Below, in pieces: positions 16,718 through 30,917 of a DNA stretch of 64,000 nucleotides; the stretch's first letter is position 1; every line of letters begins with the position of its first letter. The translations under genes were made by a program, and so were the position numbers. Source of the DNA: Baekduia soli (GTDB lineage Bacteria > Actinomycetota > Thermoleophilia > Solirubrobacterales > Solirubrobacteraceae); the NCBI RefSeq assembly GCF_007970665.1, contig NZ_CP042430.1, positions 3,410,001 to 3,474,000 on the forward strand, given 5' to 3'. Under the pieces are notes generated by a model. It searched no databases. It saw nothing but the letters and a program-made list of their open reading frames with translations, and was not told the DNA's origin.

Positions 16718-17722
16718 CTACTTGAGGTAGCCCGCCTCCTTGAGGTATTCGCCGGCCACCGCGGCCGGGGTCTGCTTGTCGAGGTCCACGCGGGAGTTGA
16801 GCTCCTGCATGACCGGCGTCGTCAGGCCCTCGTTGACCGAGGAGACGACCTTGGCGAAGTCCGGCCCCGCCGCGTCGGCGACCTTCGTCGAGGCCAGCAG
16901 CGTCACGTTGTAGGGGGGGAAGAGCTGCTTGTCGTCCTGGAGGAGGACCAGGTTGTCGGCCTTGATCTGACCATCGGTCGTGAAGACCTCGCCCACGTCG
17001 GACTGGCCGTTCTTGATCACCTCGTGGCGCTTGGCCAGGTCGATGGACAGGAACTTCTTGAACTTCAGCCCGTAGACGCTCTCCAGGCCCAGCAGGCAGT
17101 CCGTGCGCTGCTGGCACTCCGGCGGGCCGGAGACCGTCAGCGTCGAGGCCTTGGCCTTGAGGTCGGAGAGCTTCGTGATCCCGCCGAGCTTCTGGGCGGT
17201 CGCCTGGGTCACGGCGAAGCCGTTGGAGTCGGTGAACGGCGTGTGGGGCAGCGCGGTGATGCCCTCCTTGGCCATGCACGCCTTGGCCTGGTCGTAGGCC
17301 GCGGTCTCGTCGTGAGGGACGGCCTTGTCCTTGACCTTGCAGAAGCTGGTGAGGACGGTGCCGGTGTACTCGGGGTAGGCGTCGACGCGGCCGGCCTTCA
17401 GCGCCTTGAGCGCGATCTGCTCCGAGCCCAGGTTGAGCTGCTTCTTGACCTTGTAGCCCGCGGCCTGGAGCGCCTGAGCGTAGATCTCGCCGAGGATGAA
17501 CTCCTCCGTGAAGTTCTTGGAGCCGATCGTGATGGTCGGCTTGGAGCCGTTCTCGGGGTTGCTCTGGATGAGCTTGCCGTTGTCGGTGGACGTCGTGGTG
17601 GCCGGCGTGCTGGTGCCGGACCCGCTGTCGTTGCTGCTGCTGTTGTCGCTGCTGCCGCAGGCGGCCAGGCCGAAGGCCAGGACCACCGTCGCGACCGCTG
17701 CGAGCACACTGCGGGATCGCAT
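16718..17722 (-). CDS. osmoprotectant-binding lipoprotein (internal start)
   Basis: From ATG 17722, preceded by GAGGAGGAACCGGCAC (a strong ribosome site), the product is 334 residues. It has a lipoprotein signal (MRSRSVLAAVATVVL... GLAACGSS). The mature part is an OpuAC/ProX-type ligand domain for glycine betaine or choline-like solutes: TITIGSKNFTEEFILGEIYA, AGRVDAYPEYTGTVL, and VFTTDGQIKADNL. The same frame is open upstream into the permease, so this may also exist as the C-terminal half of a fusion. It is the last gene of the transporter operon. Confidence 0.85.
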   Translation of the reverse strand: MRSRSVLAAVATVVLAFGLAACGSSDNSSSNDSGSGTSTPATTTSTDNGKLIQSNPENGSKPTITIGSKNFTEEFILGEIYAQALQAAGYKVKKQLNLGSEQIALKALKAGRVDAYPEYTGTVLTSFCKVKDKAVPHDETAAYDQAKACMAKEGITALPHTPFTDSNGFAVTQATAQKLGGITKLSDLKAKASTLTVSGPPECQQRTDCLLGLESVYGLKFKKFLSIDLAKRHEVIKNGQSDVGEVFTTDGQIKADNLVLLQDDKQLFPPYNVTLLASTKVADAAGPDFAKVVSSVNEGLTTPVMQELNSRVDLDKQTPAAVAGEYLKEAGYLK

Positions 17723-18424
17723 GTGCCGGTTCCTCCTCGTGGGGGTGGGCTGCTGGGAGAGCTTCAGGCCGCGCGGCGTGACGGCACGCTGCAGGGCGGC
17801 GAAGATGAGCTCGGCGGCGATGGCCAGCAGCGCGATGAGGATCGCGGTGCCCAGCCGGCCGGCGTCGCCGTGGACGTTGGCGTTGACGATCGGCACGCCG
17901 AGCGTGTCCACGCCGACGTAGGGGCCGAGCGTGGCGGTGGCCAGCACGTTGACCACCGACGTGCGGATGCCGCCGAAGACGAGCGGCAGCGAGAGCGGCA
18001 GCTCGACCTTCGTGGCCAGCTGGCGCTCGGTCAGGCCCATGCCGCGGGCGGCGTCGACGACGTCGCGGTCGACCTGGCGGATGCCGACGTAGGTGTTCGT
18101 GAAGATGGGCGGGATCGCCAGGAGCACCATGGCGAAGACGAGGTTGCCGACGTTGAGCCCGAGGTAGGTGCTGAAGAAGACGAGCACCGCGAAGCTCGGG
18201 ACGGCGCGGCCGACGTTGGCCGCCGTGCTCGCGGCGAGCTGGGCACGGCCCTTGTGCCCCAGCCACGTCGCCAGCGGCAGCGTGACCAGGCAGGCGATGA
18301 GGATCGCCTCGAACGTGACGCGCAGGTGCGTCCACAGGAGCGGGAGCAGGTGGCTGCCGCCGATCTGCACCCCGCCGCCGACGGACTCGCGGGCGTGCAG
18401 CAGGTAGTCGATCGCGTCCTTCAC
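16718..18424 (-). CDS. osmoprotectant ABC permease read through into binding protein
   Basis: The frame runs unbroken for 568 residues from GTG 18424, which overlaps the previous permease stop (GTGA). Residues 1-230 form a BPD_transp_1 permease (KDAIDYLLHARESVGG, six hydrophobic segments, EAA loop DVVDAARGMGLTERQLATKV). With no stop codon, the frame continues through GLKLSQQPTPTRRNRH into a complete OpuAC-like binding protein. Permease-binding protein fusions exist in OpuA/BusAB of Firmicutes. Here, however, the binding domain retains its own start, ribosome site and lipobox, so both fused and separate products are possible. Confidence 0.75.
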   Translation of the reverse strand: MKDAIDYLLHARESVGGGVQIGGSHLLPLLWTHLRVTFEAILIACLVTLPLATWLGHKGRAQLAASTAANVGRAVPSFAVLVFFSTYLGLNVGNLVFAMVLLAIPPIFTNTYVGIRQVDRDVVDAARGMGLTERQLATKVELPLSLPLVFGGIRTSVVNVLATATLGPYVGVDTLGVPIVNANVHGDAGRLGTAILIALLAIAAELIFAALQRAVTPRGLKLSQQPTPTRRNRHMRSRSVLAAVATVVLAFGLAACGSSDNSSSNDSGSGTSTPATTTSTDNGKLIQSNPENGSKPTITIGSKNFTEEFILGEIYAQALQAAGYKVKKQLNLGSEQIALKALKAGRVDAYPEYTGTVLTSFCKVKDKAVPHDETAAYDQAKACMAKEGITALPHTPFTDSNGFAVTQATAQKLGGITKLSDLKAKASTLTVSGPPECQQRTDCLLGLESVYGLKFKKFLSIDLAKRHEVIKNGQSDVGEVFTTDGQIKADNLVLLQDDKQLFPPYNVTLLASTKVADAAGPDFAKVVSSVNEGLTTPVMQELNSRVDLDKQTPAAVAGEYLKEAGYLK

Positions 18425-19112
18425 GTCGCCCTCGCCCGCTGCCAGGGCAGCAGCAGCCGCTGGGCGCCGAGCAGCCCGAGGTCGAGCACGAAGGCCAGCA
18501 GCACGCAGAGCAGGCCGGCCACCGCGACGTTGGACTTGAACGCGATGTCGCTGAGGATCTGCTGGCCCAGGCCGCCGCCGCCGGCGTAGAAGGCCAGCGC
18601 GGCGAGCCCGACGGTCGTGGTGGTCGCCACGCGCAGCCCGGCGAAGATCTCGGGCAGCGCGAGCGGCAGCTCGACGCGCCACAGCAGCTGGCGCGGCGTG
18701 AAGCCCATGCCCAGCGCGGCGTCGCGCGCCTCGGCCGGCACGTTGTCCAGGCCCGTGACGATGTTGCGGAACAGGATGAGCAGCGTGTAGGCCGTCAGGG
18801 GGATGAGCGCGGTGACGAAGCCGAAGCCGGTGAGAGGCAGCAGCAGCGCGAAGAACGCCAGCGACGGGATCGTGTAGAGGATCCCGGTGACGCCGACGAT
18901 CGGGCCGGTGAGCCAGCGCCGCCGGCGGGCGACGATCGCCAGGACCAGCGCGATGGCCATGCCGAGCGCCACGGAGGCCATCGTGAGCTCCACGTGGCGC
19001 CACAGCGGGGCCGTGTACTCCCCGAGGTGGTGGACGATCCAGTCCGGGCAGAAGCCGTTGTCCTGCACGCAGGAGTGCTGGTCCCGGCGGTGGATCGTGA
19101 CCTGGGCGAGCA

Positions 19113-19113
<1 letters not shown>
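18421..19113 (-). CDS. osmoprotectant ABC transporter permease
   Basis: A 230-residue BPD_transp_1 permease with five or six membrane segments and the EAA loop AEARDAALGMGFTPRQLLW. An unusual N-terminal hydrophilic stretch (RRDQHSCVQDNGFCPDW, two cysteines) precedes the first helix. Its ATG shares one base with the stop of the ATPase gene (TGATG), and its stop overlaps the start of the next permease. It pairs with the downstream permease as the heterodimeric channel of an OpuB/OpuC-type importer. Confidence 0.9.
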
Positions 19114-19916
<803 letters not shown>

Positions 19917-20031: not shown

Positions 20032-21099
20032 CTAGCCACCGCCGACGGCGGGCAAACGCAGCGGGGCGTGGGCGAACTCGGCCATGCCCTCCTCCAGGCC
20101 CACACGCGCGCGGAACCCGAGGACCTCGGCGGCGCGCTGCGGGGAGGCGAAGACGTGGCGCACGTCGCCCCGGCGGTAGGCCCCCGTGACCACCGGTTCC
20201 GGCGCGCCGGGCAGGGCCGCCGCGAGCGCCCGGGCCATGTCGCCGACGGTGCGCGGGACGCCCGAGGCGATGTTGTAGGCGCCGGGGGCCGGCTCCTCGC
20301 ACCCGAGGGCCAGGACGTTGGCCCGGGCGACGTCGCCCACGTGCACGAAGTCCCGGATCTGGGCCCCGTCCTCGAACACGGAGGGCGCCTCACCGCGCTC
20401 GAGCGCCGAGCGGAAGATGCTCGCCACACCGGCATACGGAGTATCGCGTGGCATCCGGGGTCCGTAGACGTTGTGGTAGCGCAGGGCGGTGACGTCGACG
20501 CCGTCCTGCTCGCGCGCGAACGCGGCCAGGAGGTGCTCCTGGTGCAGCTTGGTCGCGGCGTACACGTTGCGCGGGTCGGCGGGCGCGTCCTCGGGAACCG
20601 CCTGGGGCACCAGCGGCCGGCCACACCGATGGCACGGCGGCTCGAAGCGCCCCGCGTCGAGGTCGGCGGTGGCGCGCGGCCCGGGGGCCACGAGCCCGTG
20701 CTCCGGGCAGGCGTAGCGGCCCTCGCCGTAGACCACCATGCTGGACGCCAGGACGATGCGCCCGGCGAACGAGCGGCGCGCCAGCGCGCGCAGCAGCACC
20801 GCGGTGGCGAGGTCGTTGTGGGCGACGTAGTCGGCGATGTCCATGATGTCCGCGCCCAAACCAACCATCGACGCCTGGTGGCACACGGCGCCGACGCCCG
20901 CGACCGCCGCCGCGGCGACCTCGGGATCGCGCAGGTCGGCCGTGACCACCTCGGCGCCGGCCGGCAGCCAGGGCGGCCCACCGTCGTGCGCGGTCGGCAG
21001 CAGCGCGTCGACGATCCGCACCTCGTGGCCGGCCTCCAGCAGCTGGTCGGCGATGTGCGAGCCGACGAAGCCGGCGCCGCCGGTGACCAGGATCCGCAT
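20032..21099 (-). CDS. NAD-dependent epimerase/dehydratase (extended SDR)
   Basis: A 355-residue sugar-nucleotide epimerase-type SDR. It starts MRILVTGGAGFVGSHIADQL, with VCHQAS, the catalytic SSMVVYGEG, YAATK, and a YHNVYGPRMPRDTPYAG substrate region. An insert of about 30 residues (CPEHG... PPCHRCGRPLVPQ) between the Ser and Tyr motifs has four cysteines that could bind zinc. This insert occurs in a subset of actinobacterial epimerases. It is divergent from the GT2 gene, with 47 bp between starts, and is likely part of the same glycosylation locus. Confidence 0.88.
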   Translation of the reverse strand: MRILVTGGAGFVGSHIADQLLEAGHEVRIVDALLPTAHDGGPPWLPAGAEVVTADLRDPEVAAAAVAGVGAVCHQASMVGLGADIMDIADYVAHNDLATAVLLRALARRSFAGRIVLASSMVVYGEGRYACPEHGLVAPGPRATADLDAGRFEPPCHRCGRPLVPQAVPEDAPADPRNVYAATKLHQEHLLAAFAREQDGVDVTALRYHNVYGPRMPRDTPYAGVASIFRSALERGEAPSVFEDGAQIRDFVHVGDVARANVLALGCEEPAPGAYNIASGVPRTVGDMARALAAALPGAPEPVVTGAYRRGDVRHVFASPQRAAEVLGFRARVGLEEGMAEFAHAPLRLPAVGGG

Positions 21100-21146
21100 G
21101 GCCCGACCGTAACGGTCGGTGATCCGGCGAGGACCCTTGGCGCGCA

Positions 21147-21800
21147 ATGCTCCATGTGGACGTCGACGTCATCCTCCCCGTGCTCGACGAGGCTCGGGCG
21201 CTGCCCTGGGTCCTCGGGCGGCTGCCCGCGGGCTACCGCGCCGTCGTGGCCGACAACGGGTCCACGGACGGCTCCGACGCGATCGCCCGGGGCCTGGGCG
21301 CCGCGGTGGTCGGCGAGCCGCGCCGCGGGTTCGGGGCGGCCTGCCACGCCGGGCTGCGGGCGGCGCGCGCCGACGTCGTCTGCTTCATGGACTGCGACGG
21401 CTCGCTGGACCCGGCCGACCTGCCGGCGATCGCCGGGCCCGTCCTGCGCGGCGAGGCCGACCTCGTCCTCGGGGCGCGCCGCGCCGACCGCGGGGCCTGG
21501 CCGCCGCACGCACGCCTGGCCAACCGCGTCCTGGTCTGGGAGCTGGCCCGCCGCGGCGGCCCGCGGCTGGAGGACCTCGGCCCGATGCGCGCCGCGCGGC
21601 GCGAGGCCCTGCTGGACCTCGGGATCCAGGACCGCCGGTTCGGCTACCCGCTGGAGATGGTCGTCCGGGCCCACCGCCGGGGCTGGCGGATCGCCGAGGC
21701 CGGCGTGCCCTACCGCGCCCGCGAGGGGCGCTCCAAGGTGACCGGGACCGTCCGCGGCACCGTGCGCACCGTGCGCGACATGGCCGCGGTGCTCGCCTGA
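21147..21800 (+). CDS. family 2 glycosyltransferase (dolichol-phosphate-mannose-synthase-like)
   Basis: A 217-residue GT-A glycosyltransferase. It opens VDVILPVLDEA, followed by VVADNGSTDGSDAIA, the GEPRRGFGAACHAGL helix, and the metal-binding FMDCDGSLDP. Short GT2 enzymes of this form usually transfer a sugar to a lipid phosphate. No membrane helices are seen. It overlaps the next gene by one base (TGATG). The four-gene run that follows shares the same overlaps and is surely one operon. Confidence 0.88.
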   Translation: MLHVDVDVILPVLDEARALPWVLGRLPAGYRAVVADNGSTDGSDAIARGLGAAVVGEPRRGFGAACHAGLRAARADVVCFMDCDGSLDPADLPAIAGPVLRGEADLVLGARRADRGAWPPHARLANRVLVWELARRGGPRLEDLGPMRAARREALLDLGIQDRRFGYPLEMVVRAHRRGWRIAEAGVPYRAREGRSKVTGTVRGTVRTVRDMAAVLA

Positions 21801-22456
21801 TGCCCGGCCCCGCCCGCCCGGCGGCGACGACCGTCGCCGTCATCGCCAAGGCGCCGGTGCCCGGTCGCGTCAAGACGCGGCTGTGCCCGCCCTGCACGCC
21901 CCGGCAGGCCGCCGCGCTCGCCGAGGCCTCGCTGCGCGACACCCTCGCCGCGATGGACGGCCTGGACGCCGCCGTGGGGCGTGCGATCGTCCTCGACGGC
22001 GCCGCGGGGCCGTGGCACGGCACCGAGCGCCTGTTGGCCCAGCGCGGCGGCGGGCTGGACGAGCGCCTGGCCGCGGCGTTCACCGACCTCGGCGGCCCCG
22101 CGCTCATCGTGGGCATGGACACCCCGCAGCTGCGCACGGGACACCTGCTCCGCGCGCTGGGCGCTCTGGAGGACCACGAAGCGGTGCTTGGGCCGGCGCG
22201 CGACGGCGGCTACTGGGCCATCGGGCTGCGCGACCCGTCCCGGGCGGCCGAAGTGCTGCACGGCGTGCCGATGAGCGTCGGCGGGACCCTGGCGGCCCAG
22301 CGGCGCCGGCTGGCCGGTGCCGCCCTGCGCTGGGACGAGGTCGACGAGCTGCACGACGTCGACACGATCGCCGACGCCGCCCACGTCGCGGCGCTGGCCC
22401 CGGCGTCGCGCTTCGCCGCCGTCCTGCAGTCCCTCGACCTGCGGCGTGCGGCGTGA
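21800..22456 (+). CDS. DUF2064 / TIGR04282-type nucleotidyl or glycosyl transferase
   Basis: A 218-residue protein of the DUF2064 family (TIGR04282, named for association with radical-SAM/arsenosugar clusters, CofC-like fold). Motifs are VAVIAKAPVPGRVKTRL at the N-terminus, DERLAAAF, ALIVGMDTPQL, GPARDGGYWAIGLR and a terminal DVDTIAD. The fold is a nucleotide-diphospho-sugar transferase. Substrate is unknown. It lies between a GT2 and a methyltransferase with overlapping start and stop codons. Confidence 0.85.
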   Translation: MPGPARPAATTVAVIAKAPVPGRVKTRLCPPCTPRQAAALAEASLRDTLAAMDGLDAAVGRAIVLDGAAGPWHGTERLLAQRGGGLDERLAAAFTDLGGPALIVGMDTPQLRTGHLLRALGALEDHEAVLGPARDGGYWAIGLRDPSRAAEVLHGVPMSVGGTLAAQRRRLAGAALRWDEVDELHDVDTIADAAHVAALAPASRFAAVLQSLDLRRAA

Positions 22457-23103
22457 GCGCCGAGCCGCGGTCCGGGCCGCGCGGCGCGACCGCCGGCGCG
22501 CTCTACGAGCGGGCGCTGAGCGAGGGGGCGCTGGTCGTCCGCTACGACGACGAGGAGCGCGTCGCGCTCGACGTCGCGCGCTGGCTGGGTCCCGTCACCG
22601 CCGCCGACGAGACCGTGCTGCAGCGCGCCGTCGGACCGGTCCTGGACATCGGCTGCGGTCCCGGCCGCCACGTCCACGCGCTCGCGCGCCGCGGCGTGCT
22701 CGCGCTCGGCGTCGACGTCTCGCCCGACGCCGTGCGCCTGGCGCGGTCGCGCGGGGCCCCCGTCGTGGAGGGCTCGGTGTTCGACGTCGTGCCCGGCCCG
22801 CACCGCTGGGGCTCAGCGCTGCTGCTGGACGGCTCGGTCGGCATCGGCGGGGCTCCGCGCCGGCTCCTGGGCCGGGTCCGCGAGCTGCTCGTGCCCGGGG
22901 GCCGGCTGCTCGTGGAGACCGAGGCGCCGGGTGTCGCGACGCGCACGGTGCGCGCGCGGCTGGAGGGCACCGGCGCCCGCAGCGCGGCGTTCCCCTGGGC
23001 GCTGGTCGGCGCCGACGGCATCGGCGCGCTGGGCGCCGCGACGGGCTTCGCGACCGTCGAGCGGTGGTGCGACGACGGCCGCTGGTTCGCGGAGCTCCGA
23101 TGA
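22453..23103 (+). CDS. class I SAM-dependent methyltransferase
   Basis: A 216-residue methyltransferase from GTG 22453, which overlaps the previous stop (GTGA). Motif I is VLDIGCGPGRHVHAL, motif II is ALGVDVSPDAV, and the post-I acidic loop VVEGSVFDVVP is present. The HRWGSALLLDGSVGIGG region replaces the usual motif IV. The substrate is unknown. Context places it in the epimerase/GT2/DUF2064/molybdoenzyme operon. Confidence 0.85.
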   Translation: MSAEPRSGPRGATAGALYERALSEGALVVRYDDEERVALDVARWLGPVTAADETVLQRAVGPVLDIGCGPGRHVHALARRGVLALGVDVSPDAVRLARSRGAPVVEGSVFDVVPGPHRWGSALLLDGSVGIGGAPRRLLGRVRELLVPGGRLLVETEAPGVATRTVRARLEGTGARSAAFPWALVGADGIGALGAATGFATVERWCDDGRWFAELR

Positions 23104-23185
23104 GCGCGGAAGTCCTCGCCGAGGGGGCTCGGCCTCCGGACGCGAACTCGCCCAGGGGCCCGCTCGCGTGGCCGCGGAGATCCGG

Positions 23186-24466
23186 ATGCGGGTGACCGAG
23201 CTCCTGCGCGACCCGCCGGCGCCGCCCGGCCCGTTCCGCCCGGGCTTCTGGCGCTCGCCGCTGCGCGGGCCGTGGATGACGACCGTCCTGGGCTCGCTGC
23301 TGCTCCTCGGCGTGACGGTCGTCGCCGTCACCGGCCTGCTCTCGCACGCCGCCTACGAGCCGGGCCTGGGCGCCAACGCGATCGTGCCGGCCGGCCGCGA
23401 CCTGCCGCTGACGTTCACGTGGCCGACCTCGCCGGCCTGGCTCTACGCGCTCGACCAGGGGCTGCACGTCAACGTCGGTCTGGTCACGATCCCGCTCCTG
23501 CTGGCCAAGCTGTGGTCGGTCATCCCGCGGCTGTTCGCGTGGCCGCCGGTCGCGTCGGCGGCCGAGGGCCTCGAGCGCCTCGGGATCGCGCTGCTGGTCG
23601 GCAGCGCGCTGTTCGAGTTCGCCACCGGCGTGGTCAACATGCAGAACTGGTACCCGTTCAGCTTCAACTTCGTGGTCGCCCACTACTACGGCGCGATTGT
23701 GTTCATCGCGTCGATCCTGCTGCACGTGGCGATCAAGCTCCCCGTGATGCGCCGCGCGTGGCGCGAGCGCGACGGGCTGGCGCCGCTGCGCGCATCGCTG
23801 GCCCAGACCGTGCCCGAGCCACCCGACGAGCACGGCCTCGTCGCCGCGCAGCCGGCGGCCCCGACGATCTCGCGGCGCGGCCTGCTCGGCCTCGTCGGCG
23901 TGGGCTCGGCGACGCTGCTGGTGTCCAACGTCGGCGAGTCGATCGGCGGGCCGCTGCGCGGCACCGCGCTGCTGGCCCCGCGGCGCACGAGCGGGCCGGG
24001 CCCCAACGGCTTCCCCGTCAACAAGACCGCGCGCGCCGCGCGCATCACGCCGGCGATGACCGGCGACGCCTGGCGCCTGCGGCTCGCGGCCGGCTCACGC
24101 TCGGTGGTGCTCAGCCGCGCGGACCTCCTCGCCCTGGAGCTCCGAACGGAGGAGCTGCCGATCGCCTGCGTCGAGGGCTGGTCGACCTCCCAGCACTGGG
24201 AGGGCGTGCCGCTCATCGCGCTGGCGCGGATGGTGGGCGGCGACCGGACATCGCATGTGCTCGTGCGCTCCCTGCAGAAGAGCGGCGTGCTGCGCCGGGC
24301 GACGCTGACCCGCAACCAGTACGCCGACGACCGGGCGCTGCTGGCGTTGCGCGTCAACGGCGCCGACCTGTCGCCCGACCACGGCTACCCGGCCCGGATC
24401 ATCGTCCCGGCGCTGCCCGGCGTCCACACCACGAAGTGGGTCTCCGACCTGCGGTTCGGCGCATGA
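23186..24466 (+). CDS. membrane-anchored sulfite-oxidase-family molybdoenzyme
   Basis: From ATG 23186 (GGAG upstream) the product is 426 residues. Residues 1-200 hold four or five membrane helices with histidines placed like a cytochrome-b-type domain (QGLHVNVGL, VAHYYGAIVF, SILLHVAIKL). An ISRRGLLGLVGVG twin-arginine-like motif sits before the next hydrophobic stretch. The C-terminal 170 residues are an oxidoreductase molybdopterin-binding domain. The molybdenum-ligating cysteine is in PIACVEGWS, followed by HWEGVPL and VHTTKWVSDLRF. GTG 23168 is an alternative start. Electron donor and substrate are unknown. Confidence 0.85.
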   Translation: MRVTELLRDPPAPPGPFRPGFWRSPLRGPWMTTVLGSLLLLGVTVVAVTGLLSHAAYEPGLGANAIVPAGRDLPLTFTWPTSPAWLYALDQGLHVNVGLVTIPLLLAKLWSVIPRLFAWPPVASAAEGLERLGIALLVGSALFEFATGVVNMQNWYPFSFNFVVAHYYGAIVFIASILLHVAIKLPVMRRAWRERDGLAPLRASLAQTVPEPPDEHGLVAAQPAAPTISRRGLLGLVGVGSATLLVSNVGESIGGPLRGTALLAPRRTSGPGPNGFPVNKTARAARITPAMTGDAWRLRLAAGSRSVVLSRADLLALELRTEELPIACVEGWSTSQHWEGVPLIALARMVGGDRTSHVLVRSLQKSGVLRRATLTRNQYADDRALLALRVNGADLSPDHGYPARIIVPALPGVHTTKWVSDLRFGA

Positions 24467-24951
24467 CCGCGCTGCGTCGCCACTACGGCGCCACGTCCGT
24501 GCACCTGCTGGCGCACCTGGTCGCGCTGCCCCTCGCCGCGTGGGCGATCCTCCAGGTCGTCGACTTCCGCGGCGCCCGCGACGTCGTGGTCTGGTTCGTC
24601 GCCGCGCTGGTCCTGCACGACCTCGTCGCGCTGCCCGCCTACACCGCGCTGGACCGCGTCGCCCAGCGCGCGCGGGTCCGGGGCGTCGCGGTGGTCAACC
24701 ACCTGCGCGTGCCCGCGGTCATGAGCGGCGTGACGCTGCTCGTCTTCTTCCCGCTCATCCTGGGCCGCTCGACCGGGAGCCTGCATTACCTCTCCGGCGT
24801 GACGCCCACGGGCTACCTCGGGCGCTGGCTGCTCGTCGTCGCCGCGGCCTGGGGCGGCTCAGCGGCCGTGCTGGGGGTACGCCTGCTGCGCGCCGATGAC
24901 CTGCACGACGCCGGCGGCGCGCCCGGCGACCACGACGGTGCCCAGGGCTGA
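24463..24951 (+). CDS. four-helix integral membrane protein
   Basis: A 162-residue protein whose ATG overlaps the molybdoenzyme stop by 4 bp. Four hydrophobic segments are visible, near residues 13-32, 42-60, 88-105 and 125-145, with an HDLVALPAYTALDR loop. It may be a membrane partner of the molybdoenzyme, for instance carrying electrons or quinone; this is inferred from coupling alone. Its last 93 bp lie opposite the 3' end of the lipoprotein gene. Confidence 0.7.
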   Translation: MTALRRHYGATSVHLLAHLVALPLAAWAILQVVDFRGARDVVVWFVAALVLHDLVALPAYTALDRVAQRARVRGVAVVNHLRVPAVMSGVTLLVFFPLILGRSTGSLHYLSGVTPTGYLGRWLLVVAAAWGGSAAVLGVRLLRADDLHDAGGAPGDHDGAQG

Positions 24952-25881
24952 GTCGACGGCGACGCTGTCGGGCTGGCGCACGGTCGGCAGGCGCCTCACC
25001 TCCCGCGGGCGGCCGTCGGCGGTGAGCGAGACGACCTCGTTGCGCGCGGTCAGCGTGACCCACAGGCGATGGCGGACGGGGTCGATCGCCAGCCCGTACG
25101 GGCCGCCGGGCAGGAAGACCCGCCGCAGCAGCGCCAGCCGCGGGCGGGTGCCGAAGACCAGCAGCGCGCCGCCCCGGGTGTCGGCCACGTACAGGCGGTC
25201 GGCCTCGGCGACGACGTGGGTGGGCCCGACGCCCGCGCCGGCGCTGCCGACCCGCCGCCGCGTGTGCGGGTCGTAGAGCTCCAGCACGCGGCGGCGGACG
25301 GAGACGACCGCCAGCAGGTGCCCGCCGTCGGCGGCCGCCAGGCCGCCGGGCTGGGTGGCGACCGCGAACGTGCGCCGGGTGCGCCCGGCGACCACGACCG
25401 ACACGGTGTTGCCGCGCTCGTCGCCGACGAAGATCGAGCCGGCCAGCGCGGCGGCGTCGTGGGGCTGGGCGCCCACGGCGGCCGCCTGCGCCGCGCCCGC
25501 GGGCGTGACCTGGACGAGGCGGTCGTCGCCCTCCGTCGGGACCAGGAAGCGCTCGGTGGCCGCGTCGTAGGCCAGATGGCGCGGCGGGGAGCCCAGCGCG
25601 ACGACGCGCCGCGGCGTGGCGGCGCCTGGGCGCAGCAGGATGAGCGCCGCGGGCGCGCGCACGCCGACGGCGATCGTGTGGGTGACGGGGTCGACGGCGA
25701 TGCCCTCGGCACCCGGCCCGGCGGGCAGGACCTCGCCGGCGGGCGTCGTGGCGGGGACGGGCGAGCGGGCCGGCTCCGCCGCGGGCGGCAGCTCGTGCAC
25801 GGTCTCCGAGCCGCAGCCCGCCGCCGCGAGCACCACGGCCGCCAGGACGCCGGCCGTGACGGGGGGCAGGGCGCGGCGCAC
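24859..25881 (-). CDS. beta-propeller lipoprotein (YncE-like)
   Basis: A 340-residue secreted lipoprotein from GTG 25881, with signal RRALPPVTAGVLAAVVL and lipobox AAAGC. The body is made of repeating blades with GIAVDPVTHTIAV, LAYDAATERFLV, HVVAEADRLYVADTR, YGLAIDPVRHRLWV and SVAVDSALGTVVV. This is the YVTN/NHL-like seven-bladed propeller pattern. It lies opposite the end of the four-helix gene. Such proteins bind sugars, proteins or cofactors outside the cell; the ligand here is unknown. Confidence 0.8.
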   Translation of the reverse strand: MRRALPPVTAGVLAAVVLAAAGCGSETVHELPPAAEPARSPVPATTPAGEVLPAGPGAEGIAVDPVTHTIAVGVRAPAALILLRPGAATPRRVVALGSPPRHLAYDAATERFLVPTEGDDRLVQVTPAGAAQAAAVGAQPHDAAALAGSIFVGDERGNTVSVVVAGRTRRTFAVATQPGGLAAADGGHLLAVVSVRRRVLELYDPHTRRRVGSAGAGVGPTHVVAEADRLYVADTRGGALLVFGTRPRLALLRRVFLPGGPYGLAIDPVRHRLWVTLTARNEVVSLTADGRPREVRRLPTVRQPDSVAVDSALGTVVVAGRAAGVVQVIGAQQAYPQHGR

Positions 25882-25909
25882 CCGGCCAGGGTGCCATAGC
25901 GTGGCCCGC

Positions 25910-27199
25910 GTGACCCGGGTCACCGACCGGTGGATGCTGCTCGGCGCCTTGGTGCTCGCCGCCGTCTGGACCGTGCTCGGGCTCGGGATCGAGCACGGGG
26001 GCGGGGTGCTGGGCACGGCGTCGCCGCCGTTCGTCATGGGCTGGGTCCCGCGGATCGACGTGTGGGCGCTGGCCGCGGTGGCCGTGCTCGGCGCGCTGGT
26101 GGCCGCCGGCCCCGCGCTGCTGGTCGTCCGGCTGCCCGCCTTCCTGGCCGCCACGACGGCGCTCGCGCTCGGCGCGGCGCTGGCCCTGAACGCGGCGCGC
26201 TCGGGCACACACGGCTGGTGGGCGATCTTCGACACGAGGCCGGGCGGCTCGTTCGAGGCCAAGAACGAGTACCTGCCCGGCCTGCCCGCGCTGTCCTACG
26301 GGCCGCGCTTCTTCCTCGACCGCTTCGCCGAGCTCGTGCCCGCGATGCCGGTCAACGTGGCCGGCCACCCGCCGGGGCTGCTGCTGGGGGTCGATGCGCT
26401 GGGCCTGTCCACGCCGCGGCGCCTGGCGGCCTTGTGCATCGCGGCCGCGGCGGCCACCGCGCCGCTGACGTGGGCGCTGGCCCGCGGGCTGGGCGCGGGG
26501 GCCGCGCGCGCCCGCGTCGCCGGGCTGCTGGCGGCCGCCTCGCCGGGCCTGCTGCTGTTCGGCGCCACGTCGGCCGACGCGGTCTACGCCGCCCTGGGCA
26601 CCGCGACCGCGGCGCTGCTCGTGCGCCGCGGGCGCGCGGCGCCGGCGGCCGGCACGCTCCTGCTCGCCGTCGCGGCGTTCTGCTCGTGGGCGCTGCTGGC
26701 GCTCGGCGCGTTCGCCGTGCTCGTCGTCGCGAGGCGCGACGGCCTGCGACGGGCGGCCGTGCTGGCCGTGGCGTGCGCCGTCCCGTTCCTGGTGCTCAAC
26801 GGCGCGCTGGCGGCCGCGGTCGGCTACGACCCGGTGGGGACGCTGCGTGCGACGGAGGGCGTGTACCGGCGCTCGGTCGCCGAGGTGCGGCCGTGGTGGT
26901 TCTGGTCGCTGGGCTCGCCCGTGGCGTGGGGCGTCAGCGGCGGCCTGGCCGTGACCGGCGCCTGGCTGGTGGCCGTGCGCCGCCGCGACACCGCGGCGCT
27001 CGCGCTCGCGGCGATCGTCGTCATCGCCTCCGCCGCGGGGTTCACGAAGGCCGAGACCGAGCGGATCTGGCTCATCTTCGCCGCCCCGGCCTGCGCGGCC
27101 GCCGCCGCGGTCCTGCCGCCGCGCGCGCTGCGGATCGTCCTGCTGGCCCTGGCCGTGCAGGCGCTGGCCACGCAGCTGCTGTTCGAGACGGTGTGGTGA
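25910..27199 (+). CDS. polytopic membrane protein, possible GT-C-type
   Basis: A protein of about 429 residues from GTG 25910 (GTG 25901 is equally possible), with roughly ten to twelve hydrophobic helices. A long first extracellular loop contains KNEYLPGLPAL and a conserved-looking NVAGHPPGLLLGVDAL. This resembles the GHPPG region of actinobacterial GT39/GT-C-like membrane proteins. No catalytic DE or ED pair could be assigned with confidence. It starts 28 bp from the divergent propeller lipoprotein and probably belongs to the envelope locus. Confidence 0.65.
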   Translation: MTRVTDRWMLLGALVLAAVWTVLGLGIEHGGGVLGTASPPFVMGWVPRIDVWALAAVAVLGALVAAGPALLVVRLPAFLAATTALALGAALALNAARSGTHGWWAIFDTRPGGSFEAKNEYLPGLPALSYGPRFFLDRFAELVPAMPVNVAGHPPGLLLGVDALGLSTPRRLAALCIAAAAATAPLTWALARGLGAGAARARVAGLLAAASPGLLLFGATSADAVYAALGTATAALLVRRGRAAPAAGTLLLAVAAFCSWALLALGAFAVLVVARRDGLRRAAVLAVACAVPFLVLNGALAAAVGYDPVGTLRATEGVYRRSVAEVRPWWFWSLGSPVAWGVSGGLAVTGAWLVAVRRRDTAALALAAIVVIASAAGFTKAETERIWLIFAAPACAAAAAVLPPRALRIVLLALAVQALATQLLFETVW

Positions 27200-28058: not shown

Positions 28059-28802
28059 TCAGACGCCCGCCGCGCGGCGCGCCGCGGCGTGCGCGGCGTC
28101 CTCGAGGCGGTCGTCCAGCGGGGCCAGGGCCGCGGGGTCCAGGCCCAGCGCGGTGGCCAGCAGCCAGTCGGCGAACCAGGCGTTCTTGGGCAGCAGCGGG
28201 CCGTGCAGGTAGGTGCCGATCACGGTCCCGGCCAGGACGCCCTCGGCGCCGGAGCGCCCGTCGTTGCCGTGGCCGCGCAGCACGCGGCCCAGCGGGTGGA
28301 CGCCGGTCCCGAGCATCGTCCGGCCCCCGTGGTTCTCGAAGCCCGCGAGCACGCGCGGGCCGTCCAGGCCGGGCAGCCGGACCTCGATGGCCACGTTGCC
28401 GATCAGGCGCGAGCCGTCGGCTGCGCGCACGGTGTGCAGGTCGACGAGCCCGATGCCGGGCACCCGCTCGTCGCCGAGCTCGTAGTGGTGGCCCAGCAGC
28501 TGGATGCCGCCGCAGATCCCCAGGACGAGCGCACCGCGCGCGGCCGCGGCGTGCAGGGCGTCGCACTTGGTGTCGACGAGGTCCTGCGCGCACAGGCGCT
28601 GGTCGCGGTCCTGGCCGCCGCCGAGGTAGAAGAGGTCGTGGGCGTCGGGGTCCACGGCGTCGCCGAGGCCGGCGGCGGTGAGCGTGAAGCCCAGCCCGCG
28701 CCAGGCGCAGCGGCGCTCGAGCATGAGCATGTTGCCGCGGTCGGCGTAGATGTTCATCAGGTCGGGGTACAGCGCGCAGACGCGCAGCGTGCGCTCAGCC
28801 AC
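28059..28802 (-). CDS. gatD: lipid II isoglutaminyl synthase, glutaminase subunit
   Basis: A 247-residue class I glutamine amidotransferase-like protein that frees ammonia from glutamine for MurT to amidate the D-Glu of lipid II. The nucleophile is in LGICGGIQLLGHHYE and the catalytic histidine in IGTYLHGPLLPKN, the GatD/CobB-CobQ type arrangement. NIYADRGN at the N-terminus is also typical. It overlaps the upstream methyltransferase by 8 bp. The partner murT lies one gene further upstream. Confidence 0.93.
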   Translation of the reverse strand: MAERTLRVCALYPDLMNIYADRGNMLMLERRCAWRGLGFTLTAAGLGDAVDPDAHDLFYLGGGQDRDQRLCAQDLVDTKCDALHAAAARGALVLGICGGIQLLGHHYELGDERVPGIGLVDLHTVRAADGSRLIGNVAIEVRLPGLDGPRVLAGFENHGGRTMLGTGVHPLGRVLRGHGNDGRSGAEGVLAGTVIGTYLHGPLLPKNAWFADWLLATALGLDPAALAPLDDRLEDAAHAAARRAAGV

Positions 28803-29535
28803 CGAGGATCACCACCGTCGAGCCGACATAGGCGGCGGTGGCGGGGATGCGCCGCGCGGGGCGCGGGTGCCAGCCCAGCGCGGCGGCCTCGCGCTGGACC
28901 TCGGCGGGGGTCACGCGGTCCAGGCGGATGACGTCGAGGGTCTCGCTGCGCGCCCCGCCGGGCGCGAGGATCTCGCGCAGGCGGTGGATCGCCGCGCGGT
29001 CGCCCTCGTCGACGACGGCCAGCGGCAGGCTGGAGTACGTGGCGCCCCCGGCCTCCAGGACGTCGGGCTCGGGCAGGCCGTCGGTCTCGCCGTCGAAGCT
29101 GTCCAGGGCGTCGGCCAGCGCGGCGGCCAGCGTGCCGCCCGGGGCGAGGTGCTCCCGCGCGCAGCGCAGGAACGCCGCTCGGCCCTCGGGGCCGCCGAGC
29201 AGCTGCAGGGTCTGCATCGGCACGATGATGAGCCCGAACGTCCGGCCCAGCGCGAAGTCCCGGGCGTCGGCGCACACGGTGGGCACGGGCGGCAGGCCGG
29301 CCTCCGCGGCGCGGGCGGCCAGGGCCTCGAGCAGCCGGGGCTCGGCGTCGAGGGCCACCACGCCGGCGCCGCGGGCGGCGAGGTCCAGCGCGACGCGCCC
29401 CGTGCCCGCGCCCACGTCGAGGACCGTGCCGCCCGGCGCCGCAGCGGCCAGCTCGCGCCAAAGCTCGGCGTCCTCGGCGTAGCCGCCGCATTCCACGTCG
29501 TGCCAGATGACCTCCAGCGGGACGGCGCCGGTCAT
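28795..29535 (-). CDS. SAM-dependent methyltransferase inserted between murT and gatD
   Basis: A 246-residue class I methyltransferase with motif I VLDVGAGTGRVALDLA, acidic loop VVALDAEPRLLE, and CADARDFALG. It starts at ATG 29535, overlapping the murT stop by 4 bp, and ends 8 bp inside gatD. Canonical murT-gatD operons have the two genes adjacent. Its target is unknown; a cell-wall or lipid-intermediate substrate is suggested only by position. The sequence also resembles generic Methyltransf_25 proteins. Confidence 0.87.
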   Translation of the reverse strand: MTGAVPLEVIWHDVECGGYAEDAELWRELAAAAPGGTVLDVGAGTGRVALDLAARGAGVVALDAEPRLLEALAARAAEAGLPPVPTVCADARDFALGRTFGLIIVPMQTLQLLGGPEGRAAFLRCAREHLAPGGTLAAALADALDSFDGETDGLPEPDVLEAGGATYSSLPLAVVDEGDRAAIHRLREILAPGGARSETLDVIRLDRVTPAEVQREAAALGWHPRPARRIPATAAYVGSTVVILGG

Positions 29536-30917
29536 CCGAAGCTGCTTCCCGCGGCGCCGCGGGCGACGATGAGGCGGCGCAGCTCGAGCATCGCCGTGTA
29601 GGTCGGGATGGCGATGAGGCGGCCCGGCCCCGGCGGCGTGCCGGCCAGCGCGGCGTCCAGCGCGCGGTCCAGGTCGGGCTGCACGACGAGCCGGTCCTCC
29701 GGCACGCCGGCGTACTTCAGCCGCAGGGCCATCTCGGCCGCGCGCGTGCCGCTGCACGTCACGCGCCGCAGCCGGCCGGCGAGCGTCTCGAAGTCCGCGT
29801 CCCACACCCAGCTGATGTCGCGCCCGTCGGCGGTGTTGTCGTTGAGCACGGCCAGGACGTCGTGGTCGCCGTCCTCGAGCGCGAGCGTGCGCAGCACCTC
29901 GTTGGCGCCGGCCGGGTTCTTGACGAGCAGCATGAGCAGGTCGCACCCGCCCAGGCGGACGGACTCGGCACGGCCGAAGGCGGGGGAGACGGTCTGCAGG
30001 CCGGCCACGACGTCGTCGATCGGCGCGCCGAGCGAGAGCGCCAGCGCGGCGGCCCCGAGCATGTTGTAGACGTTGTAGAGGCCGGGCAGCGGCAGGCGCA
30101 CCTCGACGGTGCCCGCGGGCGTGGCCATCGTGACCTGTGCGCCGCGCAGCCCGTCGAGCACGACGCGCTGCGCCGAGACCTGGGGGGCCGGGCGCGTGGC
30201 TCCGCAGGCGTCGCAGTGGTAGTGGCCCAGGTGGCCGAGGAAGACCAGGTCATAGCGGTAGGGCGCCCCGCAGCGGCGGCAGTGCTTGGAGTCCGCGGCG
30301 TGCGCCATGCCGCTCAGCGCCACCGCCGGGTCCTCGATGCCGAAGTAGACGACGCCGTCGGTGCCGGTCCGCGAGCGGCCGAGGTCGGCGATGAGCGGGT
30401 CGTCGGCGTTGAGCACGAGCGTGGTGCCGGGCGCGGCGGCGACGACCTGCGCCCAGCGGTCGGCGATCGTCTCGAGCTCGCCGAAGCGGTCGAGCTGGTC
30501 GCGGAACAGGTTGCCCAGCAGCAGCGCTCGCGGGTGCAGCTGCGGGACCAGGCGGTCGAGCCAGAACTCGTCGACCTCGAACAGCCCCGTGTCGCCGGCG
30601 ATCGCCCCGCCGCGCCCGGCGGCCTCCAGCAGCGCGCCGGCCACCCCGCCGGCCATGTTGGCCCCGGCGCGGTTGTGGACCAGGGTGCGCCCGCCGTGCT
30701 CGAGGATCGCCGCGGCCATCGCCGCGCTCGTCGTCTTGCCGTTGGTGGCCGAGATGACGGCGCTGCCCCGCGGCAGCCGCGCGCCGAGCGCCGCGACGGC
30801 CTGGGGCTCCAGGCGCAGCAGCAGCTTGCCCGGCAGCGACGTGCCGCCGCGGCCGGCGCGGCGGGACACGGCCCCGGCGGCGCGCGCCGCGGCCAGCTTG
30901 GCCCCCAGCAGCGTCAC
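29532..30917 (-). CDS. murT: lipid II isoglutaminyl synthase, Mur-ligase subunit
   Basis: A 461-residue Mur-ligase homologue. ATP-binding ISATNGKTTSAAM is near residue 55. The MurT-specific Cys4 zinc ribbon is HCRRCGAPYRYD and YHCDACGATR. DTGLFEVDEFW and LLGNLFRDQLDRFGE follow the family closely. The C-terminal domain contains VLNDNTADGRDISW, with the aspartate that joins the GatD catalytic site. It starts at GTG 30917, overlapping the previous gene by 4 bp. With gatD it amidates lipid II. Confidence 0.94.
   Translation of the reverse strand: MTLLGAKLAAARAAGAVSRRAGRGGTSLPGKLLLRLEPQAVAALGARLPRGSAVISATNGKTTSAAMAAAILEHGGRTLVHNRAGANMAGGVAGALLEAAGRGGAIAGDTGLFEVDEFWLDRLVPQLHPRALLLGNLFRDQLDRFGELETIADRWAQVVAAAPGTTLVLNADDPLIADLGRSRTGTDGVVYFGIEDPAVALSGMAHAADSKHCRRCGAPYRYDLVFLGHLGHYHCDACGATRPAPQVSAQRVVLDGLRGAQVTMATPAGTVEVRLPLPGLYNVYNMLGAAALALSLGAPIDDVVAGLQTVSPAFGRAESVRLGGCDLLMLLVKNPAGANEVLRTLALEDGDHDVLAVLNDNTADGRDISWVWDADFETLAGRLRRVTCSGTRAAEMALRLKYAGVPEDRLVVQPDLDRALDAALAGTPPGPGRLIAIPTYTAMLELRRLIVARGAAGSSFG

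What the first reader, a model, noticed from the sequence alone, without database searches (positions are those of the whole stretch)
20032..27199. Uncharacterised glycosylation locus built around a membrane molybdoenzyme
Epimerase, GT2, DUF2064/TIGR04282 transferase, methyltransferase, a sulfite-oxidase-fold molybdoenzyme with a cytochrome-like membrane domain, and a four-helix protein lie together; the last five are joined by overlaps or very short gaps. A propeller lipoprotein and a GT-C-like membrane protein follow. TIGR04282 proteins are linked to arsenosugar-like pathways. A product such as a methylated sugar-lipid with a redox step is suggested, but none is known to me.
Basis: partly seen in the sequence, partly recalled or inferred. 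Interest (0 to 1): 0.7.

Follow-up and report, generated by a model that had tools for sequence, protein, structure and literature searches.

The report
Methylthio-sugar locus with membrane molybdoenzyme
A soil-type bacterium carries a gene set that most likely makes a rare sulfur-containing sugar, known so far as a cap on tuberculosis-type cell walls, together with a membrane molybdenum enzyme that probably switches that sugar's sulfur between reduced and oxidised forms.

Summary
In detail: epimerase, GT2, DUF2064/TIGR04282, methyltransferase (MT), cytochrome b-molybdopterin enzyme (MO), 4-helix protein (4H), propeller lipoprotein and GT-C-like protein lie at 20032-27199. The set is conserved: of 103 MO loci, 46 hold GT2 or DUF2064, and these carry epimerase in 40, MT in 38 and 4H in 44. 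Epimerase, GT2, DUF2064 and GT-C have counterparts in a mycobacterial locus that matches Rv0535-Rv0541c (gene order recalled), where MtxS and MtxT make the methylthioxylose cap of lipoarabinomannan. A methylthioadenosine phosphorylase homologue lies in 8 of the 46 and 0 of the other 57. So this is best read as a methylthio-pentose locus. MO is Sco3746-like with an MsrP-like loop (102 of 103). Of 149 Actinomycetota genomes MO was found in 16, 15 of them with the GT-C. Best reading: MO-4H redox-switches the sugar's sulfur at the cell surface, more likely by reducing its sulfoxide. Locus identity is well supported; MO's substrate and direction are inferred, and MO-4H also stands in loci without sugar genes.

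The parts
20032..21099 (-). NAD-dependent epimerase, GalE-like subfamily with a Cys/His insertion (YxCxxHG...FEPxCxxCG); counterpart of the mycobacterial epimerase GalE3/Rv0536 (name recalled)
   Evidence: PF01370 144 bits (run on 20032-21084); TIGR01179 GalE below cut-off, 117.7 versus 262.3; 55% identical to the epimerase of the mycobacterial-type locus L151; CxxC in 36 of 39 family members over 300 residues
21147..21800 (+). GT2, predicted polyprenyl-phosphate methylthiopentose synthase (MtxS-like)
   Evidence: PF00535; best match in both directions with the GT2 of locus L151: 190.2 versus 48.9 bits next best in G200, 188.5 versus 76.4 in the window genome
21800..22456 (+). DUF2064/TIGR04282, predicted nucleotidyltransferase on methylthioribose-1-phosphate (inferred)
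   Evidence: PF09837 and TIGR04282 over cut-off; the only solved relative found at E 0.001 is 3cgx, 'putative nucleotide-diphospho-sugar transferase'; TIGR04282 homologues adjacent to MTAP homologues in L142, L143, L144
22453..23103 (+). class I SAM methyltransferase, substrate unknown; also travels with MO outside sugar loci
   Evidence: AlphaFold2 mean pLDDT 94.9; best PDB match 9klx XhnM1, TMq 0.80; in 38 of 46 sugar loci and 19 of 57 other MO loci
23186..24466 (+). Sco3746-like membrane molybdoenzyme (MO): cytochrome b-like membrane domain, internal twin-arginine motif, molybdopterin domain with MsrP-like loop; predicted redox enzyme for the methylthio sulfur
   Evidence: PF00174; invariant H94, H166, H180, R230, R231, C328 in 20 of 20; CVEGW loop like E. 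coli MsrP CVEAW; topology and Tat dependence shown for Sco3746 (PMC5449189, passages)
24463..24951 (+). 4H: small helical membrane protein, partner of MO, no known family
   Evidence: no Pfam or NCBIfam hit; labelled in 99 of 103 MO loci (44 of 46 plus 55 of 57); 99 same-strand pairs with 4H directly downstream of MO, gaps -37 to +64 bases; AlphaFold2 mean pLDDT 82.7, four long helices; no PDB match at E 0.001
24859..25881 (-). propeller lipoprotein (NHL/YncE-like), role unknown
   Evidence: PF01436 over cut-off, TIGR03866 below cut-off; lipobox read directly from the sequence; in 17 of 46 sugar loci and 5 of 57 others
25910..27199 (+). GT-C-like membrane protein, predicted methylthiopentosyltransferase (MtxT-like)
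   Evidence: no family over cut-off; 33% identity over 342 columns to the protein at the Rv0541c-like position in L151, E 3e-13; HPP invariant and ERIWL nearly invariant in 23 family members

Best explanation
[quoted passage not shown] Proposed steps: (1) an MTAP homologue, encoded elsewhere in this genome, turns methylthioadenosine into methylthioribose-1-phosphate (inferred from homology); (2) DUF2064/TIGR04282 joins it to a nucleotide (inferred from family and gene neighbours); (3) the epimerase converts ribo to xylo configuration (inferred); (4) GT2 moves the sugar to polyprenyl phosphate (reported for MtxS/Rv0539 in mycobacteria; transferred here by homology); (5) after flipping, the GT-C protein puts it on an extracytoplasmic acceptor (MtxT/Rv0541c uses the mannose caps of lipoarabinomannan; the acceptor here is unknown); (6) MO, its molybdenum domain outside and predicted b hemes in the membrane, with 4H, exchanges electrons with the membrane quinone pool and converts the sugar's sulfur, more likely from methyl sulfoxide back to methyl thioether, as MsrP does for methionine sulfoxide (inferred). 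MT's role is open. The stated confidence covers MO acting on the sulfur in either direction; the oxidising variant (rival 2) is contained in it.
For: Gene set conserved: of 46 MO loci with GT2 or DUF2064 (GT2 in 44, DUF2064 in 38), epimerase is in 40, MT 38, 4H 44, this GT-C or a GT87-type protein 39; in the 57 other MO loci epimerase 1, MT 19, 4H 55, GT-C or GT87-type 7. Mycobacterial-type loci L107, L151, L152 carry MTAP, epimerase, GT2, DUF2064 and GT-C beside AMP-ligase and phosphate-permease genes and, where the stretch reaches it, a UbiA-type gene (maps; Pfam on L151 and L152 genes; L107 flanks read by eye), as recalled for Rv0534c-Rv0545c. In L107 the MO-4H-MT trio sits inside this locus; in genome G200 it is a separate trio beside WS/DGAT and esterase genes (L153). 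GT2 is best match in both directions; epimerase, DUF2064, GT-C 55%, 41%, 33% identity. MtxS and MtxT roles: PMC8780516 figure legend. MTX and its sulfoxide both occur on lipoarabinomannan: PMC8531672 passages. MTAP homologue in 8 of 46 sugar loci, 0 of 57 others (Fisher 0.001); the window genome's homologue is 73% identical to the in-cluster one of L046. MO depends on the pathway: of 149 genomes MO (E 1e-60) in 16, GT-C (E 1e-20) in 15 of those and in 9 of the other 133 (Fisher 1e-13); of 61 relatives MO (E below 1e-60) in 20, GT-C (E below 1e-40) in 18 of those and 0 of 41. MsrP-like CVE-x-W loop, CVEGW in 102 of 103 MO. A methionine sulfoxide reductase is reported to take a natural carbohydrate of this bacterium as substrate (Stalford 2009, title in reference lists).
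Against: MO-4H also occurs without sugar genes nearby (57 of 103 loci; 31 of the 66 with over 5 kb on both sides), and on the MO tree the sugar label is scattered (28 changes, shuffled mean 33.9, 9 of 500 shuffles as low), so a general repair role is possible. SoxC and vertebrate or plant sulfite oxidases score better against MO than MsrP does. GT-C occurs without MO in 9 of 24 genomes, so MO is not needed to make the sugar. The window genome's MTAP homologue is below the MTAP equivalog cut-off (143 versus 274.85 bits) and lies about 1.7 Mb away. The genome also has MtnA, so methylthioribose-1-phosphate has another outlet. Strong MTAP homologues are in 18 of 20 MO-positive relatives (one split by a stop) but also in 18 of 41 MO-negative ones. 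MT has no place in the scheme. The main MTX paper (Angala 2017) is not held. Counts are not corrected for kinship, and the whole-genome searches scored only a capped number of candidates per genome.
Confidence: 0.6

Rival explanations
1. The locus makes an MTX-type sugar, but MO-4H is a general extracytoplasmic methionine sulfoxide repair system (MsrP/MsrQ-like in one chain) that merely sits beside it.
For: MO-4H without sugar genes in 57 of 103 loci and a scattered MO tree; MsrP-like loop; the Sco3746 paper calls MsrP/MsrQ distant homologues.
Against: A general repair enzyme should not depend on the sugar pathway, yet 15 of 16 MO genomes and 18 of 20 carry the GT-C, also where the two are far apart or on different contigs (G137, G152, G200).
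Confidence: 0.2
2. Same locus, opposite direction: MO oxidises the methylthio sugar to its sulfoxide and feeds electrons to quinone, making the sulfoxide form on purpose. (This confidence is part of the 0.6 of the best explanation.)
For: Best profile scores are to SoxC and sulfite oxidases; both forms occur on mycobacterial lipoarabinomannan.
Against: The loop around the molybdenum cysteine is of the MsrP type, CVEGW in 102 of 103.
Confidence: 0.15
3. The sugar is another 5-substituted 5-deoxypentose (5-deoxy, arsenical), made by the same route.
For: NCBIfam names TIGR04282 and TIGR04283 after arsenosugars; phosphorylases of this family might accept 5'-deoxyadenosine (general knowledge).
Against: The mycobacterial counterpart of this gene set makes methylthioxylose; an enzyme of a sulfur-oxygen family is part of the set.
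Confidence: 0.05

Closest known systems
Methylthioxylose capping of mannosylated lipoarabinomannan in mycobacteria (MtxS Rv0539, MtxT Rv0541c)
   Same: GT2, DUF2064, GT-C and epimerase families at the corresponding mycobacterial-type locus; MTAP in that locus
   Different: Here the locus adds MT, MO, 4H and a propeller lipoprotein; the MTAP homologue lies elsewhere; the acceptor is unknown. Sugar-type MO loci were also found in Solirubrobacterales, Streptosporangiaceae, Streptomycetaceae, Micromonosporaceae, Brevibacterium and others
Sco3746 family of dual Sec-Tat membrane molybdoproteins (PMC5449189)
   Same: Membrane domain with conserved histidines, twin-arginine motif before the last membrane stretch, C-terminal molybdopterin domain
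   Different: In the passages read the paper gives no substrate and no gene neighbourhood; a sugar sulfur is proposed here. The Sco3746 sequence itself was not fetched
MsrP/MsrQ methionine sulfoxide reductase (E. coli)
   Same: CVE-x-W-S active-site loop, and the Tat signal aligns with MO's internal motif; heme b membrane partner
   Different: MO carries its membrane domain in the same chain, ahead of the molybdenum domain; it has the extra partner 4H; the proposed substrate is a sugar; far below the NCBIfam MsrP cut-off
TIGR04282/TIGR04283 'arsenosugar biosynthesis glycosyltransferase' pair
   Same: DUF2064 is just over the TIGR04282 cut-off
   Different: GT2 is far below the TIGR04283 cut-off (36.8 versus 182)

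Membership tests
MTX (methylthioxylose) biosynthesis locus | MtxS-type GT2 | tested here: met
   Best match in both directions with the GT2 at the corresponding position of a mycobacterial-type genome; the H37Rv protein itself was not fetched
MTX (methylthioxylose) biosynthesis locus | MtxT-type GT-C membrane transferase | tested here: met
   33% identity, E 3e-13; the family profile finds one match in the window genome and one in G200 among the candidates scored
MTX (methylthioxylose) biosynthesis locus | Epimerase and DUF2064 of the same subfamilies | tested here: met
   55% and 41% identity to the proteins of L151
MTX (methylthioxylose) biosynthesis locus | A methylthioadenosine phosphorylase to supply the sugar | tested here: inconclusive
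   Homologue in the genome, 73% identical to an in-cluster one, but below the MTAP equivalog cut-off
MTX (methylthioxylose) biosynthesis locus | Methylthioxylose found on a cell-surface glycan | not testable with these tools
   Needs chemistry
Sco3746-type membrane molybdoenzyme | Membrane helices with heme histidines, internal twin-arginine motif, molybdopterin domain with cysteine ligand | tested here: met
   Invariant H94, H166, H180, R230, R231, C328 in 20 of 20; PF00174; membrane helices read by eye from the sequence, not predicted by a tool; not compared directly with the Sco3746 sequence
MsrP methionine sulfoxide reductase | NCBIfam MsrP model over cut-off | tested here: not met
   26 versus 207 bits; the loop is shared, so 'works like', not 'is a'
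Sulfite oxidase/dehydrogenase (SoxC, SorA, SorT) | NCBIfam models over cut-off | tested here: not met
   SoxC 39 versus 420, SorA 23.9 versus 600, SorT 27.4 versus 570 bits
TIGR04283 arsenosugar glycosyltransferase | Over cut-off | tested here: not met
   36.8 versus 182 bits

The most novel reading that the evidence does not exclude
Actinomycetota widely carry a redox-switchable surface sugar: a methylthio-pentose whose sulfur is set to thioether or sulfoxide by a dedicated membrane molybdenum-heme enzyme (Sco3746/Rv0218 type with partner 4H), and TIGR04282 proteins are nucleotidyltransferases for 5-substituted 5-deoxyribose-1-phosphates in both methylthio- and arseno-sugar pathways.
Probability: 0.4. 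Interest if true: 0.85.

Novelty: new variant of a known kind. Interest (0 to 1): 0.74.

Why it matters
Methylthioxylose is called the hallmark of M. tuberculosis lipoarabinomannan (PMC8531672, abstract passage). Finding its gene set in several actinobacterial orders that, to general knowledge, lack that lipoglycan means the sugar may be older and wider than its known setting, with other acceptors to be found. It also offers a first testable substrate for the orphan Sco3746/Rv0218 molybdoenzymes, a function for DUF2064/TIGR04282, and a possible control of the sulfoxide form seen on lipoarabinomannan. In the held library no paper has both 'methylthioadenosine' and 'methylthioxylose'; a search for methylthio-pentose names with molybdenum or sulfoxide reductase gave 309 papers, and in the 15 listed the only such tie that I saw was the cited title on methionine sulfoxide reductase A. 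The key MTX paper is not held, so prior mention cannot be ruled out.

Tried and rejected
Considered and rejected: (a) ordinary exopolysaccharide locus - rejected because four of its genes match the Mtx-type locus one by one; (b) arsenosugar locus - rejected as main reading because GT2 is far below the TIGR04283 cut-off; (c) MO as sulfite oxidase - no such model over cut-off.

Led nowhere: fold of 4H (3 PDB matches at E 10, none at 0.001; best Z 4.8 among 7 chains); fold of MT (859 PDB chains at E 0.001 or better, too generic to name a substrate); MtnA survey (present in the window genome and, over the cut-off, in 19 of 61 genomes, so it does not mark the sugar route as the only outlet); MO tree (does not separate sugar from other loci); literature on TIGR04282 (2 papers and 2, one of them the same; by title and abstract start none is a study of the protein). 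An older review (PMC3229680, passages) had named Rv0541c as a candidate mannosyltransferase for phosphatidylinositol mannosides.

3 of 106 loci were dropped as the same places as others (L057, L058, L066). Gene calling was by my own codon-score script. 'Sugar locus' means GT2 or DUF2064 present, and some loci are cut by contig ends (for instance L032), so 46 is a lower bound. The two genome samples (61 and 149) overlap in at least five genomes (G000, G005, G018, G023, G038). Whole-genome searches scored a capped number of first-look candidates per genome. At weaker scores the GT-C profile also touches G004, G029, G044 (MO-negative) and G012 (MO-positive), E 4.5e-8 to 2e-5. Fisher tests ignore kinship. 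DUF2064 counts at E 1e-30 include weaker-scoring TIGR04282 copies outside the cluster in G005, G008, G032.
Full report
What is there. Eight genes lie at 20032-27199: epimerase (-), then GT2, DUF2064, MT, MO and 4H on the + strand as a tight run with overlaps of 1, 4 and 4 bases and one gap of 82 (MO taken from the ATG at 23186), then a propeller lipoprotein (-) and a GT-C-like protein (+). The genome is one contig of 5.2 Mb; its near relatives carry Solirubrobacterales titles, so it is placed there by inference.

Relatives. After dropping 3 duplicates, 103 MO loci (window included) were mapped. 4H is labelled in 99 of 103, and 99 same-strand pairs have 4H directly downstream of MO (gaps -37 to +64). 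GT2 or DUF2064 is present in 46 loci. In those 46: epimerase 40, GT2 44, DUF2064 38, MT 38, 4H 44, this GT-C 28, this GT-C or a GT87-type protein 39, propeller 17, MTAP homologue 8. In the other 57: 1, 0, 0, 19, 55, 5, 7, 5, 0 (GT2 and DUF2064 are 0 by definition). Of the families outside this set, the most frequent were a response regulator and a kinase (22 and 20 loci), then a short-chain dehydrogenase (13), so the core set stands above the background of common families.

What the sugar is. The clue was a methylthioadenosine phosphorylase family in 8 sugar loci, for example Brevibacterium antiquum L086 (GT2-DUF2064-MT-MO-4H-MTAP-epimerase in one run) and L046, from the window's own family. 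The MTAP of L151 is over two curated MTAP cut-offs. [quoted passage not shown] The primary paper is not held. GT2 is best match in both directions; epimerase, DUF2064 and GT-C align at 55%, 41% and 33% identity. The window genome's MTAP homologue is 73% identical to L046's in-cluster one but scores below the MTAP equivalog cut-off. It keeps the TD pair at the base-binding position, as the mycobacterial-type MTAPs do, where the genome's PNP-like paralogue has TN (that Asp means adenine and Asn 6-oxopurine is recalled).

DUF2064. The only solved relative at E 0.001 is 3cgx, a putative nucleotide-diphospho-sugar transferase, and it is weakly similar to CofC. In L142, L143 and L144 a TIGR04282 homologue (over the curated cut-off in L142 and L143, below it in L144) lies next to an MTAP homologue; in L143 the TIGR04283 partner follows, also over its cut-off. 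In G008 (78% complete), whose sugar cluster L054 lacks DUF2064, the only match in the genome is the one beside MTAP. This supports a role directly after MTAP: a nucleotidyltransferase for methylthioribose-1-phosphate (inferred).

MO. The family is known: Sco3746 has five membrane helices, is Tat-dependent and is predicted to bind two b hemes and molybdopterin (PMC5449189, passages), and the authors call MsrP/MsrQ distant homologues. Against E. coli MsrP the loop CVEGWS..W.GV aligns with CVEAWS..W.GF, and MsrP's Tat signal with MO's internal SRR motif. CVEGW is in 102 of 103. By profile score, however, SoxC and vertebrate or plant sulfite oxidases come before MsrP (that 1xdq is E. coli MsrP is recalled). 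Rv0218 is described as multi-spanning with a C-terminal molybdopterin domain (PMC5800017, passages); MO of G200 (L153), 55% identical to the window's, has the neighbours that I recall for Rv0218.

Tie between MO and the sugar pathway. Among 61 relatives MO (E below 1e-60) is in 20 genomes; the GT-C (E below 1e-40) is in 18 of those and in 0 of 41 others; DUF2064 (E below 1e-30) in 17 and 1. Among 149 Actinomycetota MO (E 1e-60) is in 16, GT-C (E 1e-20) in 15 of those and in 9 of 133 others. In 12 of the 15 the two are within about 6 kb; in G137, G152 and G200 they are apart. Fisher p about 1e-13 for MO with GT-C in both samples, kinship not corrected. The one exception, G142, has a DUF2064 homologue about 11 kb from MO. 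So MO was rarely found without the pathway, while the pathway does occur without MO: what one expects of an enzyme that acts on the product. [quoted passage not shown] Hence the proposal that MO-4H works on the sugar's sulfur, more likely reducing its sulfoxide.

Against. MO-4H also stands in loci without sugar genes, and its tree does not split by locus type (28 changes against a shuffled mean of 33.9), so moves and general repair roles are possible; direction and substrate are inferred. Strong MTAP homologues are in 18 of 20 MO-positive but also 18 of 41 MO-negative relatives, and MtnA offers another outlet. MT occurs with MO in 19 of 57 non-sugar loci and is unexplained; its fold is a generic class I methyltransferase.

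Verdict. The locus is real, conserved and best explained as an MTX-type methylthio-pentose glycosylation locus (about 0.8 on its own); MO acting on the sugar's sulfur is likely but unproven (about 0.6, of which 0.15 is the oxidising direction); reduction is favoured by the active-site loop.

Noticed in passing
L143:2016-4136: MTAP homologue, TIGR04282 and TIGR04283 (the last two over their cut-offs) overlap as one operon: the so-called arsenosugar transferase pair beside a methylthioadenosine phosphorylase homologue.
   Followed up: partly
window 20032-21099 and 38 further epimerases: The epimerase subfamily has a Cys/His insertion (YxCxxHG...FEPxCxxCG), CxxC in 36 of 39, like a small zinc site; to general knowledge not a feature of ordinary GalE.
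   Followed up: partly
L107:13753-15464 and other loci: A response regulator and a histidine kinase family each occur in 15 of 46 sugar loci; E. coli msrPQ also has a two-component pair nearby, hprRS.
   Followed up: no
L072, L085, L088, L097, L101, L105: A lipoprotein-like family of about 225 residues lies within 2.5 kb of MO in six loci.
   Followed up: no
L066 (CAMCUD010000001.1): Record titled Bifidobacterium breve MAG is the same place as L041 of genome G015, which is in the window's own family: the title is probably wrong.
   Followed up: partly
window 28059-30917: By eye, a glutamine-amidotransferase-like and a Mur-ligase-like protein (GatD/MurT type) with a methyltransferase-like gene between them; not searched.
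   Followed up: no
window 16718-19916: By eye, an osmoprotectant-type ABC transporter whose permease and substrate-binding parts are fused in one 568-residue protein (gene model); not searched.
   Followed up: no
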